A stretch of 64,000 nucleotides of DNA, taken from positions 1 to 64,000 of the forward strand of contig JACNJS010000087.1 in the NCBI GenBank assembly GCA_014382445.1, given 5' to 3'. The DNA comes from Bacteroidota bacterium. GTDB taxonomy: Bacteria > Bacteroidota > Bacteroidia > Bacteroidales > F082. Within the stretch, counting starts at the first letter, position 1, and each line of letters begins with the position of its first letter. A program made the position numbers and the translations under genes. A model generated the notes under the pieces. That model did not search any database and was not told where the DNA came from. It was given only the letters and a program-made list of their open reading frames with translations. Of this stretch, positions 3,001 through 59,411 are shown in pieces.

Positions 3001-4240
3001 TTGATGTATTGTTGGAACCGGAAGCCGGATCCCCAAAATTCCATGTTACAGATTGAATAGAATCGGACGTAGTTATATCAAAATAAGTAGTATCTCCATA
3101 GCAATCATTCTGATAAGTTATTGTTGCAGAGAAATAACTTTGGATAAATGAGGGCAAACCTAGCCTGCCTGCCTTTCCATCAAGATACACACCATCATGT
3201 ACAAAATTGCAGGCAATACCTAACACATTTGGATTATTTATAACTCCAAGATAACTATGAAAATCCAGTGAAGTATAGATTTTTTCATCCGGACCAACCT
3301 GAAGTGCGCCCAACTCATAAAGTGCTGAAGTTCCAACAGATGTTGCTGAATTTATTATATCATTTGGTGTACCTGCATTCAGATTAATCTGAAATACCTC
3401 AGCTTGATTTCGGATTACTCCAAGGTAGAGCCTTGACTCATCCGGTGAAAACTCTAATCCATAGGCAAAAGCATAATTATTAAATGTAATTGGATTTGAA
3501 ACCTGACCTGAACTCCTACTAAAATCTAGCATTTCAAATAAAGCCAAGGTTCCATGTATCGCGCATGCTATATAATTTCCCATTGGAGAAATCTTCATAT
3601 AGCCAACATAATTTGATGACGGAGCCCCATGAATTGTACCAATATTACTTATAACAGGTGATGAACTAACTCCAACCGAAGTAACAAGGAATGAACAAAA
3701 AGCGTTTGAATTTCTTTCATGTGTTACTACCCAGACATCATTGCCGTTTGAATGTGATGTGGCTGTAATTTTTTCAACAACTGGTTGATAAAGCAGAACA
3801 TTCTTAGTTATTACACTACCTAAACCACTATTAAGACTAATATCAACTATAGAATAATATAATTCTCCATTTGCATCAATAGCCGAGGGTACTGTAAATA
3901 TGTAATACAATGTGTCTGACCCCGGTTTAGGAACAATAATTGCGGACTGTGTTGAAGAAAAATCACCCAAAAGACCTGTACCATTATCCATTATTTGGTG
4001 ATTACTATTCCAAACCGTAGTTCCTTCAGTGTAAAACAAAATGTTGCCAAGTGAATCTGAAACTGATGCACACCCCTCCCTTGTAGCTAAGGCACCATCA
4101 ATAATGGCAACCGGTGATCCAGAATTAAAATCAACACCTGCATTATCCCCAAAATACCAGATATTTGCTTCATTCTGAGCATAACAATTATTAATTAAAA
4201 AGAAATAAAAAAGGATTAATAATAATTTTGCGCTTTTCAT
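1..4240 (-). CDS. Giant secreted PKD-repeat protein, partial (C-terminus beyond left edge)
   Basis: Reverse-strand ORF from ATG at 4240 (MKSAKLLLILFYFFLINNCYAQNEANIWYFGDNAGVDF...) stays open to base 1. It has a signal peptide, a beta-propeller-like N-terminal part, then repeated PKD-like motifs such as WxWDFGDG...H.Y...G.Y.V.L.V. Absent from the ORF track, probably because it runs off the edge. Confidence 0.9.
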   Translation of the reverse strand, partial: MKSAKLLLILFYFFLINNCYAQNEANIWYFGDNAGVDFNSGSPVAIIDGALATREGCASVSDSLGNILFYTEGTTVWNSNHQIMDNGTGLLGDFSSTQSAIIVPKPGSDTLYYIFTVPSAIDANGELYYSIVDISLNSGLGSVITKNVLLYQPVVEKITATSHSNGNDVWVVTHERNSNAFCSFLVTSVGVSSSPVISNIGTIHGAPSSNYVGYMKISPMGNYIACAIHGTLALFEMLDFSRSSGQVSNPITFNNYAFAYGLEFSPDESRLYLGVIRNQAEVFQINLNAGTPNDIINSATSVGTSALYELGALQVGPDEKIYTSLDFHSYLGVINNPNVLGIACNFVHDGVYLDGKAGRLGLPSFIQSYFSATITYQNDCYGDTTYFDITTSDSIQSVTWNFGDPASGSNNTSTEPQPGHMFTAPGNFIVTASVVFNGGYSQDVTTEVTIHNVPQINIGNDTTLCQGASLLLDPGTGYSLYLWQDNSVNELFTVTQTGVYWVTVTNSNGCSTTDSITVSYFPSVNINLGSDSLYCFVDSILLHAGNNFAAYLWQDGSSDSLFTVYNNGTYWVEVIDTNGCAGYDTVNISFFRNTVNIGNDTIICSGNFVTLDAGMGFSNYLWSTGQTTQSIAINASGFYDVEASFGHCSSYDTMELTVQEGAFSYSGSNESVCQLETFSFTNCNILPNATNYDSLLWFGGLGAFSDSSILHPEYIPLGTELGDISLSLIAYGSYPCPNDTSSMTLTIDTIPAAGINVSPSSSSCVGSLLNFSGYGTTSITNWSWDFGDGSPSNTGQNVNHLYSSSGNYIVTLIVINSNNCSDTVNQIIVIHDLPTADFTYYPADSICINESVAFNDISYPNIVSWIWDFDDGITSTFQNPNHSFGAQGIYNVQLTVTDSNACEASINSSLQIHSLPEPNFTILPNATVCAELPLTFSGFDNAGTTITGWYWDFGDGVLDTGQLVTHAFAPGDYTVTLTALNNNSCNETHVNTVHINSLPQSNFTMSPNDTSCMGELINFDATNITSDIISWDWQFGDGNTSTGQNVTHIYNQAGNLNILSIYTNANGCIDTTIHQHNVQDVNIGFTMIPTPSCQDYTVNFTGTGDLVTFTDWNWTYGDGSAPGLGHNTSHIYTSPDTVDVILDVCSEHDVQQLIINAPCQVDAGSDEATCEDVYFDLSSSTILPTADYFSSIFWYTDGLGTIDDSTILYPTYFPDPIEGSVQNDTINMTLVGVGIPPCANDTSTMELVIIPGAYAQAGSDENSCIGEPYDFANSSDSAFATNYATIVWYTSGTGSFVNPNVEQPIYIPGPSEIGPVTLTMVASNIINCDSIDDMVLTIRPTYEIPVDITVCYYDSVYAQGAWRYASGIFYDTLQTNTFGCDSVIVTNLTVRPKIDRDFVISTGDSICLGETVS

Positions 4241-34414: not shown

Positions 34415-36088
34415 ATGACAAAAAAACTAATCTTAATTGTTTTATTAATTGTTACAGCATCTTATTCTACATCCGCATCTAATAATAACAACCAGGGTGA
34501 TACATTATTTGTATTAAGTGAAGGTGTAGCAGTAAGAACAGAATTGCCTGATACCGAACTTACTGTAAGTCAGAAAATAGATCGGGCATTCACACCTATC
34601 GTCAACGGTTTAGGTGTTGTACTATTTTGGGATCCGTTTGAGACAACAGATTTACACGACCCCGTTATTTATAATGAACAAGGTGAACCATTACTAAACC
34701 ACGACGGTTCTGAAAAAAAGTCAAATATTCCACTGGTAGTAATATGGCTTATTTTTGGAGCTATCACTTTTACGGTAATGTTGCGATTTATTAATTTCAG
34801 AGGGTTTAAACATGCTATTCAGCTTATAAGAGGAGTTTATGACAACCCTAACCATAAAGGAGAAGTTTCACATTTTCAGGCTCTTACTACTGCATTGTCA
34901 GCAACTGTAGGTCTTGGCAACATTGCTGGTGTAGCAATTGCCATTACTATCGGAGGCCCTGGAGCTACTTTTTGGATGATAGTTGCAGGTTTGCTGGGCA
35001 TGTCGTCGAAGTTTGTGGAGTGTACATTGGGGGTAAAATACAGACAAATCGACAAACATGGTGTTGTATCGGGTGGCCCAATGTATTATTTACGTGATGG
35101 GTTAAAGAAGAAAAACCTAAAATGGCTGGGTATTATACTTTCAATAGTTTTTGCAATTCTGGTTATTGGGGGATCGTTTGGCGGAGGAAATATGTTCCAG
35201 GCTAATCAGGCATTTTCTCAATTGGCCTATCTGGTACCAGGAATTGAAAACTATGGAGTGTGGTTTGGGGTTATACTGGCTATATTGGTTGGAGCCGTTA
35301 TTATTGGAGGAATAAAAAGTATAGCAAGGGTAACCGACAAAGTAGTGCCCTTCATGGCAGCCATTTATGTAATCACTGCTTTGATAATTATTTTTATGAA
35401 CATTGAGAACACCGGAGCAGCTTTTAAACTAATAATTGACGGAGCTTTTGGTGCAGATGCGCTAAAAGGTGGTATAATTGGTGTGCTTATAGTTGGGTTT
35501 CAGCGAGCTGCTTTTTCAAATGAAGCAGGTGTGGGCTCCGCTGCCATTGCTCACTCTGCTGTTAAAACCGATACACCAATTACCGAAGGGTTTGTTTCGT
35601 TGCTTGAACCTTTTATTGATACTGTTGTAATATGTACCATGACAGCATTGGTCCTTATTTACACCGGAACCTATGAAAACCCAATGGGCTACGAAGGAGC
35701 CCAGCTTACATCAGAAGCATTCTCAAAAGTATTTTCCTGGTTTCCTTACATACTAGTGTTAGCAATTTTTCTGTTTGCGTTTTCAACTATGATTTCCTGG
35801 TCGTACTATGGACTTAAAGGGTTCGACTATTTAGTAGGTGGATTTTCGGAAAAAATATTCGGAACCAGAGATGTAGCCAAATATACGTACTTTGTAACTT
35901 TTCTGTTTTTCATTATCGTTGGTGCTTCATCCAACCTGGGATCAGTTATTGCATTTTCTGATATGATGATTCTTTCAATGGCATTTCCTAATATTATTGG
36001 GTTATTGATTTTACTGCCTGAAATTAAACACGATTTATCCGACTATTGGGGCAAGCTCAAATCAGGTGAAATTAAGAGATACAAATAA
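34415..36088 (+). CDS. Alanine/glycine:cation symporter (AGCS) family protein
   Basis: [52 protein letters not shown]...[25 protein letters not shown]. Confidence 0.94.
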
Positions 36089-37038
36089 TGTTGAACAAGC
36101 TAAATAACTGGATTAAAGTTTTCTTCAGTTTAAGTAAAAATGAGCAGCGAGGAATTATTGTTCTTGTTTTTATAATATTATTTGTTGTAATTGTTAATTT
36201 ATCACTGCCACATTTTTTCAAATCAAAGTCCGAATCGAATCTTCACAAATACAAAGCTGATATTGAATTGTTTCATAAAGAACAACAACCGTTAATCGAT
36301 TCAGCTAACATTGAATTTTTGCAAAATTCGGGTGAAATGGATTTTGCAATTGCAAGTCAGAAAATAAAACCAACTAAATTCAATCCAAATAAACTTCCGG
36401 TTGAAGCCTGGAAAAAAATGGGCTTTACGGATATGCAGATACGTACTATTAAAAATTATGAAGCAAAAGGCGGAAAATTTAATAGGAAGGAAGACTTGAA
36501 AAAGATATATTCGATTTCGGAGGTTGAGTACGAAATTTTAGAGCCCTACATTAGTATTCCATCGATTTACAAATCAAAAACGGGTAGGATTATTAAAAAA
36601 AATCCGCCTTTTAAAAAAGCAAACTATCAAAATGTTGACATTAACTCTGCTGATTCCAGCGAATTAATAAACTCATTGAATCTATCGCCATGGCTCGCTA
36701 AAAGAACAATTAGTTATAGAAACCTGCTCGGTGGATATGTAAATAAAAATCAGCTTAAGGAAGTTTATGGATTTACCGATAGCATCTACAATGCCATCGA
36801 AAGCTATATTACCACCGACTCCAGCTTAATTACTAAAATTGACATTAACCGTATTGATTTCAAAAATTTGCTTAAACACCCTTATTTTGATTATAATATT
36901 ACAAACTCATTTTTTAATACACGTAATAAGATTGGTTCATTTTCATCAGTCGACCAACTGAAACTAATTGATGGAATTAACGATTCAATATTTAATAAGG
37001 TTCGGTATTATTTGTATTTTCGGCCATCTGAAAAATAA
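36088..37038 (+). CDS. Helix-hairpin-helix (ComEA-like) domain protein, membrane anchored
   Basis: N-terminal TM; HHH-like repeats FNPNKLPVEAWKKMGFTDMQIRTIKNYEAKGGKF, VDINSADSSELINSLNLSPWLAKRTISYRNLLGGY, IDINRIDFKNLLKHPYFDYNITNSFFNTRNKIGSF. TAATG overlap with upstream gene. Confidence 0.85.
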   Translation: MLNKLNNWIKVFFSLSKNEQRGIIVLVFIILFVVIVNLSLPHFFKSKSESNLHKYKADIELFHKEQQPLIDSANIEFLQNSGEMDFAIASQKIKPTKFNPNKLPVEAWKKMGFTDMQIRTIKNYEAKGGKFNRKEDLKKIYSISEVEYEILEPYISIPSIYKSKTGRIIKKNPPFKKANYQNVDINSADSSELINSLNLSPWLAKRTISYRNLLGGYVNKNQLKEVYGFTDSIYNAIESYITTDSSLITKIDINRIDFKNLLKHPYFDYNITNSFFNTRNKIGSFSSVDQLKLIDGINDSIFNKVRYYLYFRPSEK

Positions 37039-37113: not shown

Positions 37114-37257
37114 AAGAAGCCTGAAGCAGGGAGTCAGGGTCATGAGGATATTGCTTCGGTCTTCTGATTCTGACCTCAAGTCCATCACGAATGTTTCTAA
37201 AAATGTATATAATTGATATATTGTGAAAATCACATCATTTGTTGCCTCAACCACTCA
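37114..37257. repeat. Left copy of ~144-bp perfect direct repeat flanking the IS (long target-site duplication)
   Basis: Identical by eye to 38912..39055 over the whole length (the adjoining G at 37113/38911 also matches). Confidence 0.95.
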
Positions 37258-38911
37258 CCTGACTTCCGCACTGGGACACCCTAATTAGAATTCAAATAGT
37301 TTAGCAAGATTTTTTTGTTCATCATTGAGTATAAGCATACTTTCAATTATCTCCTTATTAAGAGGCGTAGTAAGTTTTATTGAATAAATTGTTTTTGCAA
37401 TTTCAATTACTTTTTCTGGACTCAAACTTGATTGCTTTTCTTTTAATTGCCTTTCAATTTCCTTATATATCTTGTAAGCAACGAAGGAAATACAAATGTG
37501 TGCTTCTATTCTTGACTGCTTGCTATGGTATATAGGCCGTATTTTGAGATCATTTTTAGATATTCTAAATGCTTTTTCAATCTTCCATAAGTGACTATAG
37601 TTTTCAATAATATCATTTTTTGATAAATTGGTATTTGTTAAGTATCCTTTTAAACCATCCCATTTTTGATCTAACAAATATTTTTCTTTGTCAATGGTAA
37701 TTTTAATTTCTCCATCCATTTTTAAATACTTGTTGTAACCTCTGTTGTTGATATTTGCTTTGGTTAACCTTCCGGTTCTAATTTGTTTCTCAAGCCTCCT
37801 TAATCCCTTTTCCCTGTTTACTTTATCTTTTTTAGCTCTGCTCTCAGAGTAACTAACAATTAGTTTGATGTTATCATCCTTCTCAATGACTTTATTCTCT
37901 CCATTTTTCAGGGCTAAATTCAGTATCTTGTCTTTTATTATTTGCTTCTCATTTTTAATCCTTGCTCCTAAAATAAACTCGTAGTCCTTTCTTTGTAGTT
38001 CTACTATGTTAGCAGATGATAAAAGACCCGAATCGGCTATAATTACTAATTTATCAAGCTTATACATAGACTTAAAGTGGTCTACCACTGGAAGCATTGT
38101 ATGACCTTCGAACTTATTACCTTCAAAAATCTCATATGCTAATGGATAGCCGTCAATGCTCACGAGTAAACCTAAAACTATTTGTGGGTTTTGATGTTTT
38201 CCTTCTTTCGAAAATCCTGTTTTGCGTAAATCATCTTCTTTGTCTATTTCAAAATACAAAGTGGTAACATCATAAAATACAATACTAATTTCGTTGTTCA
38301 ATATCCTGAGAGTGTGCCGAAAACTAATTTGCTGAACCAGTTCTTTTTGAGTATTATATAGTTTATCAAGATAGCGATAAACAGCGTCATCATCTATCTC
38401 TATGGAGTGGTGCTTTTTTAGGTAATCAACTGTTTTTAATTTGCTTGTTGGATAGCTTATCCGTGCTAATACAAGGTATCTAAATATGTCGTCTTTAACT
38501 TGGTTAAATCCAATTCTGTCAAATATTTTTGTTATTAGTAGCTCAATTCCGGAATTGTTAACTTGCTGAATACTCGATATAAACTTAGAAAGTGCCTGTT
38601 TCTCATTTGAAAAATCAAGTTCTTGCTGCCCTAATTGCCTCTTTATCCATTGCTCTCCCTGCTGTATTAATTGTATAAGCACTTGTTTATCCTGTGACCT
38701 GCCAAGTGATTTTAGAACCTTGTACTTTCCTGAACTTTTATCTATAACCTGGACACTTACTGTTCCACTCTTGTTAGGTTTCTTTCTTACAAACATCCAA
38801 CAAATCTAACAACAAAAAACATTTGGGACACCGTAATAATGCATATTTATATCATAACAGACTGATTATCACATTGTGATTGTTGAAGGAAAAATAAGTG
38901 CGGAAGTCAGG
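37258..38911. mobile_element. Insertion sequence, IS1634/IS1549-like, 15-bp terminal inverted repeats
   Basis: TIRs CCTGACTTCCGCACT (37258..37272) and AGTGCGGAAGTCAGG (38897..38911) bracket one transposase ORF; flanked by a 144-bp perfect direct repeat. Confidence 0.9.
37285..38796 (-). CDS. IS1634-family (IS4-like superfamily) DDE transposase
   Basis: VFYDVTTLYFE, VIIADSGLLSSANIVELQRKDYEFILGARIKN, YSHLWKIEKAFRISKNDLKIRPIYHSKQSRIEAHICISFVAYKIYKEIE. Confidence 0.9.
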   Translation of the reverse strand: MFVRKKPNKSGTVSVQVIDKSSGKYKVLKSLGRSQDKQVLIQLIQQGEQWIKRQLGQQELDFSNEKQALSKFISSIQQVNNSGIELLITKIFDRIGFNQVKDDIFRYLVLARISYPTSKLKTVDYLKKHHSIEIDDDAVYRYLDKLYNTQKELVQQISFRHTLRILNNEISIVFYDVTTLYFEIDKEDDLRKTGFSKEGKHQNPQIVLGLLVSIDGYPLAYEIFEGNKFEGHTMLPVVDHFKSMYKLDKLVIIADSGLLSSANIVELQRKDYEFILGARIKNEKQIIKDKILNLALKNGENKVIEKDDNIKLIVSYSESRAKKDKVNREKGLRRLEKQIRTGRLTKANINNRGYNKYLKMDGEIKITIDKEKYLLDQKWDGLKGYLTNTNLSKNDIIENYSHLWKIEKAFRISKNDLKIRPIYHSKQSRIEAHICISFVAYKIYKEIERQLKEKQSSLSPEKVIEIAKTIYSIKLTTPLNKEIIESMLILNDEQKNLAKLFEF

Positions 38912-39055
38912 AAGAAGCCTGAAGCAGGGAGTCAGGGTCATGAGGATATTGCTTCGGTCTTCTGATTCTGACCTCAAGTCCATCACGAATGTTTCTAAAA
39001 ATGTATATAATTGATATATTGTGAAAATCACATCATTTGTTGCCTCAACCACTCA
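38912..39055. repeat. Right copy of ~144-bp perfect direct repeat, containing the 3' end of the RNA methyltransferase gene
   Basis: Identical to 37114..37257; includes the last 28 nt of the 39028..39579 CDS. Confidence 0.95.
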
Positions 39056-39579
39056 AACAATGCAATAGCCAGAGCATGTGTAACATTTAATGAACTAATG
39101 GGGCCAGGAATGGGGATATACACCTTGTGACCTGCAAACTTTATTACTTCGTCACGAATACCCGCTATTTCATTACCTATAAGGAAAGACGTTTTTGCAG
39201 GGAACTTAAACTGATAAATGTTTTGTGCATTGGTTGTGGTTTCTATGGCTACTAATGTGTAGTCGGCAGGCATACTAGTCATTAGTTCATTTGCCTTAAT
39301 GATTTCCCAGTTTGTTTTCTCGCTGCCTCCCGATGCTGTACGATTTACTTTATGTTTTTTAAATGTGCTTGCTTTATCAGAAATAAACAAGGTTTGAAGA
39401 ACACCTATGTTTCCGGCAAGCCGCAATATAGCACCCATATTCTCAGGGCTACGAATGTTATCTGAAACAATAATAGGGCGGCTCAACGTATCATAAATTG
39501 AATAAAGTTTCAATTGGTCGTGGAATATTTGATATGAATTTTGGAATCTCATAGAAAGCAAAAGTAAAATTAATAACAA
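39028..39579 (-). CDS. TrmH/SpoU-family RNA methyltransferase
   Basis: PIIVSDNIRSPENMGAILRLAGNIGV..., FLIGNEIAGIRDEVI, VYIPIPGPISSLNVTHALAIALFEWLRQ (SpoU motifs 1-3). Confidence 0.92.
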   Translation of the reverse strand: MLLILLLLSMRFQNSYQIFHDQLKLYSIYDTLSRPIIVSDNIRSPENMGAILRLAGNIGVLQTLFISDKASTFKKHKVNRTASGGSEKTNWEIIKANELMTSMPADYTLVAIETTTNAQNIYQFKFPAKTSFLIGNEIAGIRDEVIKFAGHKVYIPIPGPISSLNVTHALAIALFEWLRQQMM

Positions 39580-56984: not shown

Positions 56985-59411
56985 ATGAAATTAAAGAAAT
57001 TTACGATTTTAACTTTTTTGATAATGACCGTCACTTCTATGGCAATGTCACAAAATATTTTTGTTTATGATCAGCAGGCAGGAAATCCAATTCCAAATGT
57101 TGTTGTTTTTAATGATAACAAGACCAAAACCGGGCTTACAAGCAATTTAGGGATTGCTGACATTAGTGGTTTTTCAGAAAACGAAGACATTAATTTTCAG
57201 CACCCGTCTTACGTTTCAATTTCATTGACTAAGAACACTATTACAGGATTGCAATTTAAAGTTCCGTTAAACGGGAAGTTGATAAATCTTGATGAAGTAA
57301 TTGTTTCGGCCAGCAGATGGGAAATCAAATCGAGTGAAATTCCAAATAAAATTGAACAGATAAAACGCAAGGAAATTATCTTCAATAATCCTGCTACATC
57401 GGCTGATATGCTAGCAATAGGAAATCAGGTTTATGTGCAGAAAAGTCAACTGGGTGGTGGCAGCCCAATGATCAGAGGGTTTGCTACCAACAAAATACTT
57501 ATGGTTGTTGATGGCGTTAGAATGAATAATGCAATCTACCGTAGTGGTAATTTACATAACGTTCTTCAGGCTGATGTGAATAGCATTGAAAGTGCCGAAA
57601 TTATTTTCGGTCCCGGTACTAACATCTACGGAAGTGATGCACTTGGGGGCGTTATTGATTTTCACACTCTTACACCTAAATTCAACACTTGTGATAAAAT
57701 GATTGGCACCGGTAATGCACTTGCACGATTGTCATCTGCTGATTTCGAAAGGACTATCAATGCTAATTTTAATTTATCCAATAATAGTTGGGCTTTAATG
57801 ACAAATATATCGTACAGTAAATTCGAAGATTTACGCATGGGCAACATGCACAACGATTATAATCAACGTCATGAATATATTGATTTTGTTAACGGGAGAG
57901 ATACAATTATACAAAATACTGATCCTAATATTCAACGTTACTCGGGTTACGACCAGTTAAGCATAATAACAAAAATACGGCATAAGTTTAGCGAAAATGT
58001 TGACTGGGATTATAGTTTATATCTTACAACAACATCAGCTGTACCTCGATACGACAGATTGCTACAACCCAACAATCCAAATGATCAAGATTCAGAGCTC
58101 AAATATGCCGAATGGAATTACGAACCTCAACAATGGCTGATGAACAGGCTATCAATCAACATGCATAATAACGCATCATTTTATGATAAAGCGATAATTA
58201 CATTAGCCTACCAAAATGTTAAAGAGGGTAGAACAGACAGAAAATATAGAGATGACTGGTTGCAAAAACGCGAAGAACAGGTAAATATTTTTTCGATAAA
58301 TACTGATTTCGATAAATTAATAGCAGCAGGTAACTTTATATACTACGGCTTGGAACTTGTTTACAATGATGTTCAATCGGATGGTGTTAAAGAAAATATA
58401 CAAACACATGAGTCAGCGCTTATATCAAGTCGTTATCCCGATGGCGGAACAAAATTTTTCCAGTCGGGAGTTTACATAAGCTACAAAAGAAATTTCAGTA
58501 GTATACCTTTAACATTTTTAACCGGGTTGAGATATTCTTATGTAAGTTTGGATTCGAAGTTTAAAGACACTACCTACTATCAACTTCCCTATGCAGCAAT
58601 AAATATCAGTAATGGCTCTTTAACAGGAAGCGCAGGATTAGTTTATCATCCGGGCGATTGGCAGTTTAATATCAACTTATCATCCGGTTTTCGGGCCCCT
58701 AACTTAGACGATGTTGCAAAAATATTTGATTCGGAGCCTGGTAATGTTGTAGTTCCAAATGAAAATCTGGAACCCGAATACTTGTATAACCTTGATGTTG
58801 GTATTATTAAAAAATTCAGCGAAAATGCTAAACTTGAGATCACTGCATTTTATTCCTACCTCGTTAATGCAATGGTACGAAAGAATTTTACCCTAAACGG
58901 ACTAGATTCAATTATGTACGACGGCGAATTAAGCCGTGTGCAGGCTGTTGTTAATGCCGGTGGTGCAACAATTTATGGAGCAAGCATGATTTTCAATATT
59001 AAACTATTCAATAATTTAGCCTTAAGTACTGTACTAACTACCATTAAAGGAAAGGAAGATACCGGTGAACCACTTCGCCATGCACCGCCATTATATGGTG
59101 GGACAAAGCTTACATTTGAGAAAAACAAATTGAAAATGGCAGTTGGAGTCGACTATAACACAGAAATTAGCTATAAAAATCTCGCTCCAAGCGAGCGCGA
59201 CAAAGCATACCTGTATGCTACTGATGCCGATGGAAACCCATACTCACCCGGTTGGTGGACATTAAACTATAACGGAAGTTATGCTTTTAATGAAAAATTC
59301 ATTACCTTTTTCGAAATAGATAATATTATGGATTACAGGTATCGTACTTATTCATCCGGTATAACAGCCCCGGGAAGGAACTTCAAAATATCATTCAGAT
59401 ATAGTTTCTAA
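56985..59411 (+). CDS. TonB-dependent receptor
   Basis: Carboxypeptidase-D-like N-terminus, plug domain SPMIRGFATNKILMVVDGVRMNNAIYRSGNLHNVLQADVNSIESAEIIFGPGTNIYGSDALGGVIDFHT, C-terminal barrel ending in F. Confidence 0.93.
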   Translation: MKLKKFTILTFLIMTVTSMAMSQNIFVYDQQAGNPIPNVVVFNDNKTKTGLTSNLGIADISGFSENEDINFQHPSYVSISLTKNTITGLQFKVPLNGKLINLDEVIVSASRWEIKSSEIPNKIEQIKRKEIIFNNPATSADMLAIGNQVYVQKSQLGGGSPMIRGFATNKILMVVDGVRMNNAIYRSGNLHNVLQADVNSIESAEIIFGPGTNIYGSDALGGVIDFHTLTPKFNTCDKMIGTGNALARLSSADFERTINANFNLSNNSWALMTNISYSKFEDLRMGNMHNDYNQRHEYIDFVNGRDTIIQNTDPNIQRYSGYDQLSIITKIRHKFSENVDWDYSLYLTTTSAVPRYDRLLQPNNPNDQDSELKYAEWNYEPQQWLMNRLSINMHNNASFYDKAIITLAYQNVKEGRTDRKYRDDWLQKREEQVNIFSINTDFDKLIAAGNFIYYGLELVYNDVQSDGVKENIQTHESALISSRYPDGGTKFFQSGVYISYKRNFSSIPLTFLTGLRYSYVSLDSKFKDTTYYQLPYAAINISNGSLTGSAGLVYHPGDWQFNINLSSGFRAPNLDDVAKIFDSEPGNVVVPNENLEPEYLYNLDVGIIKKFSENAKLEITAFYSYLVNAMVRKNFTLNGLDSIMYDGELSRVQAVVNAGGATIYGASMIFNIKLFNNLALSTVLTTIKGKEDTGEPLRHAPPLYGGTKLTFEKNKLKMAVGVDYNTEISYKNLAPSERDKAYLYATDADGNPYSPGWWTLNYNGSYAFNEKFITFFEIDNIMDYRYRTYSSGITAPGRNFKISFRYSF

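What the first reader, a model, noticed from the sequence alone, without database searches (positions are those of the whole stretch)
37114..39055. IS1634/IS1549-like element flanked by a perfect ~144-bp direct repeat
The IS (37258..38911) has clean 15-bp TIRs, CCTGACTTCCGCACT/AGTGCGGAAGTCAGG. On either side lies a direct repeat of 144 bp (145 if the ambiguous G is counted) that I read as identical. Most IS make duplications of about 2-14 bp. From memory, IS1634 (Mycoplasma) and IS1549 (Mycobacterium) are the documented exceptions with very long, variable duplications, and this transposase looks like that family. It would be a Bacteroidota example. The perfect identity suggests a recent insertion.
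Basis: partly seen in the sequence, partly recalled or inferred. Interest (0 to 1): 0.72.

Follow-up and report, generated by a model that had tools for sequence, protein, structure and literature searches.

The report
Jumping gene with long target duplication
A bacterial jumping gene here copied 144 bases of host DNA on insertion instead of the usual handful, and a survey of its relatives shows that such long, variable duplications are the rule in its lineage, with both ends of the element joining the same kind of short target sequence.

Summary
Confirmed. A 1,654-bp IS1634-family element (37258-38911; 15-bp perfect TIRs; 503-aa DDE transposase) is flanked by an exact 144-bp direct repeat (37114-37257 / 38912-39055). 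The repeat occurs nowhere else in the genome and contains the last 28 bp of a SpoU methyltransferase gene, so it is duplicated host DNA; that gene stays intact. The long-repeat behaviour is known for IS1634 and IS1549, so the element is a new member of a known kind. Literature (PMC2266710) treats these two as exceptions in a family with 5-6 bp repeats and notes that no mechanism had been proposed. My survey found 40 exact, abutting repeats of 16-680 bp (median 94) in Bacteroidota, Actinomycetota and Campylobacterota, including a second, 183-bp case in this genome; one complete genome holds six near-identical copies with repeats of 88-241 bp. Five Rhodococcus plasmids show an empty site with a single copy. 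All long-repeat elements fall in one supported clade; six of the eight 5-bp elements lie outside it and two form a nested subclade. In Bacteroidota both junctions carry the same half-site, 5'-|ARA, without 10.5-bp phasing. I infer that each end chooses its own half-site on opposite strands.

The parts
37114..37257 (.). left copy of the 144-bp target-site duplication (37113 G is ambiguous)
   Evidence: the repeat finder, 100% identity; only two places in the genome
37230..37257 (-). orphan duplicate of the last 28 bp (with stop codon) of the SpoU methyltransferase gene, inside the left copy
   Evidence: in register with 39028-39055
37258..38911 (-). complete IS1634-family insertion sequence, 1,654 bp; single copy in the assembly
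37258..37272 (+). terminal inverted repeat CCTGACTTCCGCACT
   Evidence: I3, 100% complementary
38897..38911 (-). terminal inverted repeat AGTGCGGAAGTCAGG
   Evidence: I3
37285..38796 (-). transposase, 503 aa, DDE type (D176, D255, E407; Y400, L403, K414)
   Evidence: residues by alignment; fold similar to Tn5 and piggyBac-type transposases
38912..39055 (.). right copy of the 144-bp target-site duplication; starts with the half-site 5'-AAGAAG next to the element
39028..39579 (-). SpoU/TrmH-type RNA methyltransferase gene hit by the insertion but kept intact, because its 3' end is inside the duplication
   Evidence: Pfam SpoU_methylase E=4e-28; homologues match to within 1-2 residues of its end
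36088..37038 (+). upstream neighbour, ComEA-like helix-hairpin-helix protein, not disturbed

Best explanation
This is an intact IS1634-family insertion sequence that inserted once near the 3' end of a SpoU methyltransferase gene and duplicated 144 bp of target DNA. SHOWN HERE: the exact abutting repeat; its host origin (it carries the gene's 3' end); the same behaviour with variable length in relatives, including several copies of one element in one genome; a single-copy empty site for a relative; and, in Bacteroidota, the same half-site 5'-|A-R-A at both points of joining. INFERRED: the 3'-OH of each element end attacks its own half-site, one per target strand, at a distance not fixed by the transposase. 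The duplex between the two nicks is then copied from both sides by host strand-displacement repair synthesis, giving the long repeat. The stored confidence is for 'IS1634-family element with a true 144-bp target-site duplication'; for the uncoupled half-site mechanism I would say about 0.5.
For: Exact 144-bp repeat abutting perfect TIRs. The repeat is unique in the genome and contains 28 bp of a coding gene. IS1634 model hit. Forty clean abutting repeats of 16-680 bp, quartiles 64/94/162. Six near-identical copies of one element in one complete genome have 88, 90, 111, 142, 209 and 241 bp; three copies in an actinobacterium have 64, 128 and 365. Empty sites: in five Rhodococcus plasmids the left-flank+repeat and repeat+right-flank matches overlap by exactly 104 bp, the length of the repeat. 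Half-sites: +1 = A in 60 of 72 (background 30%, p=2e-20), +2 = purine in 63 of 72, +3 = A in 48 of 72. 'AR' is present at both ends in 19 of 36 elements against 1.0 expected, with similar strength at the left and right ends. No 10, 10.5 or 11-bp phasing of lengths.
Against: No empty site for this very locus: the nearest relatives are too distant. 25 of 65 copies with both flanks of at least 700 bp have no long repeat (at least two of the 25 have mis-called ends). One pair of these is explained by swapped flanks, the rest are unexplained. The left-end half-site of this element is TGAG, not ARA. The ARA rule is not evident in the Actinomycetota elements (read by eye). No biochemistry.
Confidence: 0.95

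Rival explanations
1. Mechanistic rival: the two element ends join two different sister duplexes at a replication fork. One product carries a duplication and the reciprocal product a deletion, and we see the duplications where they abut.
For: Would explain free spacing, absence of helical phasing, and the 25 of 65 well-flanked copies without any repeat, since repeat-less copies still mostly carry A next to both ends.
Against: Some repeat-less copies have another cause: one pair has swapped flanks, with 524- and 320-bp repeats across copies. No deletion has been demonstrated.
Confidence: 0.25
2. Mechanistic rival: one-ended or copy-out transposition. One end is joined by the transposase, and the second junction arises by replication and template switching back on the target.
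For: Would give variable duplications.
Against: Both junctions carry the same half-site motif with similar strength, and repeats abut element ends that are precise at CCTG on both sides in the surveyed set, which a template switch would not give.
Confidence: 0.08
3. Pre-existing tandem duplication: the 144 bp was already present twice and the IS landed exactly at the junction.
For: No empty site of this locus is available.
Against: Needs a precise hit at the junction here and in about 40 other loci; the relative's empty sites have one copy.
Confidence: 0.01
4. The 144 bp belongs to the element as a longer terminal direct repeat.
For: None beyond adjacency.
Against: It contains the end of a host gene. 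Repeats differ in sequence and length among copies of one element. It is not found elsewhere in the genome.
Confidence: 0.01
5. Assembly artefact of a draft genome (97 contigs).
For: 97 contigs; repeats around IS copies are a common place for misjoins, and several relatives' contigs end at such repeats.
Against: The same pattern in genomes or long contigs of chromosome size (G249, G338, G431, G502) and in complete plasmids.
Confidence: 0.02

Closest known systems
IS1634 (Mycoplasma mycoides) and IS1549 (Mycobacterium smegmatis)
   Same: Same transposase family model; long, variable direct repeats (8-514 bp for the two elements together, as reviewed in PMC2266710)
   Different: Other host phyla; 503 aa and 1,654 bp. 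The original papers (PMC93511, PMC106989) and the two element sequences were not in reach, so close kinship was not measured; a Mycobacterium plasmid element of the clade has a ~608-bp repeat
5-bp members of the IS1634 family (plasmid elements of Geobacillus, Alicyclobacillus, Streptomyces, Pseudonocardia, Dietzia; in the literature ISGka5 and ISPfe2, 6 bp)
   Same: Same family, same catalytic residues
   Different: Repeats of 5 bp (CTTCC, ATTTT, TTGTA, ATACT, GGTCA, CGGGA) or 6 bp (PMC8024623, PMC3281130); transposases longer (median 563 against 507 aa); separate branch of the tree
IS4 family, Tn5/IS50
   Same: DDE transposase; the model resembles Tn5 transposase (best E about 2e-6, TM 0.37-0.42); Y...E...K motif
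   Different: IS4-family repeats are 7-13 bp and the YREK arginine is present (PMC2266710); here leucine 403

Membership tests
IS1634 family | Transposase scores above the NCBIfam NF033559 cut-off | tested here: met
   376 bits against 100
IS1634 family | DDE with a modified YREK motif (arginine not conserved) | tested here: met
   D176, D255, E407, K414 invariant in 68 sequences, Y400 in 66 of 68; position 403 is Leu in 60 of 68; criterion from PMC2266710
IS1634 family | Length 1500-2000 bp; ends C-----YT | tested here: met
   1,654 bp; CCTGACTT; criterion from PMC2266710 Table 1
IS1634 family | Direct repeats of 5-6 bp (typical, not defining: the name-giving element itself deviates) | tested here: not met
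   144 bp; PMC2266710 lists IS1634 and IS1549 as the exceptions
IS1634/IS1549 long-repeat kind | Long direct repeat abutting both ends | tested here: met
IS1634/IS1549 long-repeat kind | Length varies between copies of one element | tested here: inconclusive
   This element has one copy; met for relatives in five multi-copy genomes
IS1634/IS1549 long-repeat kind | Repeat is a target duplication (single copy in the empty site) | tested here: inconclusive
   No empty site for this locus; shown for a Rhodococcus relative
IS1634/IS1549 long-repeat kind | Sequence kinship with IS1634 and IS1549 themselves | not testable with these tools
   Their sequences were not fetched from any collection searched; papers not held

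The most novel reading that the evidence does not exclude
A large, cross-phylum clade of IS1634-family transposases has given up the fixed stagger of other DDE transposases. Each end picks its own half-site (5'-|ARA in Bacteroidota) on opposite strands, tens to hundreds of bp apart, and a nested actinobacterial subclade uses a fixed 5-bp stagger. The spacing rule of strand transfer would then be an evolvable, genetically mappable property.
Probability: 0.4. Interest if true: 0.75.

Novelty: new member of a known kind. Interest (0 to 1): 0.52.

Why it matters
The element itself is one more member of a known but poorly understood kind. The survey turns two 1990s oddities into a clade-wide rule and supplies a concrete handle, the same half-site at both junctions with free spacing, on a question for which a 2008 review stated that no mechanistic model had been proposed. 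A nested subclade with 5-bp repeats makes the trait testable by chimaeras. Practical points: such repeats exceed many assembly k-mers and may break short-read assemblies, they can in principle let homologous recombination excise the element cleanly, and they allow insertion near a gene end without breaking the gene, as here.

Tried and rejected
The own-locus empty site was sought in 40 related genomes: only coding similarity at 66-67% in the best cases. The Aliarcobacter (~680 bp) and R. ruber (224 bp) empty sites were not resolved, and no empty site was found for L274 or L261. Helical phasing of lengths was tested and not found (n=40, weak power). A first tree with long-branch outgroups was replaced by a careful tree without them. 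Some automatic end calls were wrong (L047, L083, L105, L119, L122, L132, L210, L222 and similar, with poor TIRs or misplaced frames); L122 was left out of the repeat statistics. The Vilei 1999 and Plikaytis 1998 papers are not held.

Full report
Observation. The window holds a 1,654-bp element, 37258-38911, bounded by 15-bp perfect terminal inverted repeats. It encodes a 503-aa transposase on the minus strand (37285-38796), which NCBIfam names IS1634 family (2.9e-112; DDE_Tnp_1 in Pfam). An exact direct repeat abuts both ends: 145 bp as read, 144 bp once the G shared with the right terminal repeat is counted to the element. Both copies are identical and occur nowhere else in the 3.47-Mb assembly. 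The IS is present once.

The repeat is host DNA. Its right copy contains the last 28 bp, stop codon included, of a SpoU-type RNA methyltransferase gene (39028-39579, minus), to which homologues in relatives match to within one or two residues of the end. The left copy carries an orphan duplicate of that gene end (37230-37257). The insertion therefore hit the coding sequence, yet the gene stays complete because the long duplication restores its 3' end. The upstream neighbour ends at 37038 and is untouched.

Survey. With element ends fixed at CCTG, 40 clean cases have direct repeats of 16 to 680 bp, quartiles 64, 94 and 162. Variable length within one element is direct: a single-contig genome (G249) has six near-identical copies with 88, 90, 111, 142, 209 and 241 bp; Litoribacter populi has 39, 97 and 250; Prevotella bivia 45 and 65; Candidatus Parvibacillus calidus 49 and 185; an actinobacterial genome has 64, 128 and 365. 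The window's own genome carries a second, 34%-identical IS1634 element with a 183-bp repeat. Other phyla: Rhodococcus 102, 156 and 224, Actinomyces 56, Mycobacterium riyadhense about 608, Aliarcobacter about 680.

Empty site. For the Rhodococcus sp. RDE2 plasmid element (L137), five other Rhodococcus plasmids match left-flank-plus-repeat and repeat-plus-right-flank in places that overlap by exactly 104 bp, the length of the repeat as read (102 bp once the ends are fixed at CCTG). For example, in CP142145 the matches are 57109-57657 and 57554-58357. The empty target thus holds one copy and the insertion made the second. No such comparison was possible for the window's own locus.

Copies without a repeat. 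Of 65 copies with at least 700 bp on both sides, 40 have a repeat and 25 do not (at least two of the 25, L047 and L083, have mis-called ends). In Litoribacter two of these copies have exchanged flanks: the left flank of one pairs with the right flank of the other by 524 bp, and the reverse by 320 bp, by recombination or a scaffold join. One copy in G249 sits inside a CRISPR array, with a 4-bp AAGA overlap inside a CRISPR repeat. The rest are unexplained; loss by recombination, deletion-type insertions and short repeats are all possible.

Target rule. Reading the 5' end of each joined target strand inward, the 72 half-sites of the 36 Bacteroidota elements have A at +1 in 60 (background 30%, p=2e-20), a purine at +2 in 63 and A at +3 in 48. 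'AR' occurs at both ends in 19 of 36 elements against 1.0 expected. With one copy per element the +1 preference remains (45 of 52, p=6e-17). The left-end and right-end tables are alike, and lengths show no 10, 10.5 or 11-bp phase. Repeat-less copies also mostly have A next to both ends (88% at +1). Actinobacterial elements do not show the A-rich rule by eye. The window element has AAGAAG at one junction and TGAG at the other.

Tree. In a maximum-likelihood tree of 61 transposases, all 35 long-repeat elements lie in one clade of 46 (100/100). Six 5-bp elements (Geobacillus, Alicyclobacillus, two Streptomyces, Pseudonocardia, Dietzia) lie in the other clade of 15 (100/100). Two further 5-bp elements (L146 TCCGA; L286, with L289 from the same genome: TCGGA, CCGGA) form a 100/100 subclade nested within the long-repeat clade. 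The long/short label needs two changes. The root is a midpoint, so the direction of change is not settled. The original IS1634 and IS1549 are not in the tree.

Mechanism. Shown: precise element ends, host-derived repeats, free spacing and the same half-site at both joints in Bacteroidota. Inferred: each 3'-OH end attacks its own half-site on opposite strands, and host synthesis through the intervening duplex makes the repeat. The AlphaFold model (mean pLDDT 80.9) resembles Tn5 and piggyBac-type transposases only loosely (TM 0.29-0.42), which fits a DDE cut-and-paste enzyme but does not test the spacing. A two-duplex event at a replication fork remains the main rival; template switching is disfavoured by the symmetric junctions.

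Known or new. PMC2266710 gives 5-6 bp repeats for the IS1634 family, with IS1634 and IS1549 (8-514 bp) as atypical, and says that no mechanistic model had been proposed. PMC8024623 and PMC3281130 report 6 bp for ISGka5 and ISPfe2. The window element is therefore a new member of the long-repeat kind. What I did not find described in the open-access papers searched is that long repeats are the norm of a cross-phylum clade, the shared half-site, and the nested 5-bp subclade. Most subscription papers and ISfinder were out of reach, so this absence is weak evidence.

Noticed in passing
L003 (own genome, G000:C45:17345-18682): Second IS1634-family element in the same genome, 34% identical transposase, ends CCTGACTTGTCCG, flanked by an exact 183-bp direct repeat.
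   Followed up: yes
G000:C97:234504-234859 (L004, L005): Short fragments of a third IS1634-type transposase, a probable relic.
   Followed up: no
L125 (G249:C1:1118500-1126500): A copy of a related IS lies inside a CRISPR array (about 36-nt repeat, some 24 units at 65-66 bp spacing) and is the only full-length copy in that genome without a long repeat; a 4-bp AAGA overlap lies within a CRISPR repeat.
   Followed up: partly
L069:1253-1396 and 3782-3925: The target of one G249 copy appears a third time with 6 mismatches next to a different IS-like end (TACTGTTTTATGCACTGGGG), as if the same site had been hit twice by related elements.
   Followed up: no
L228 and L251 (Litoribacter populi): Two IS copies have swapped flanks (cross repeats of 524 and 320 bp): recombination between copies, or a scaffolding join.
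   Followed up: yes
L049 (1,919-bp contig) and L065 (1,943-bp contig): Contigs whose two ends are identical over 109 and 118 bp and hold one IS: probably assembly-graph loops through a collapsed long repeat, or excised circles.
   Followed up: no
L146, L286, L289: Actinobacterial relatives inside the long-repeat clade have 5-bp repeats (TCCGA, TCGGA, CCGGA).
   Followed up: partly
window:39581-39618: Perfect 14-bp inverted repeat with a 10-nt spacer between two minus-strand genes; it has the look of a terminator of the upstream gene but was not called by the terminator scan.
   Followed up: no
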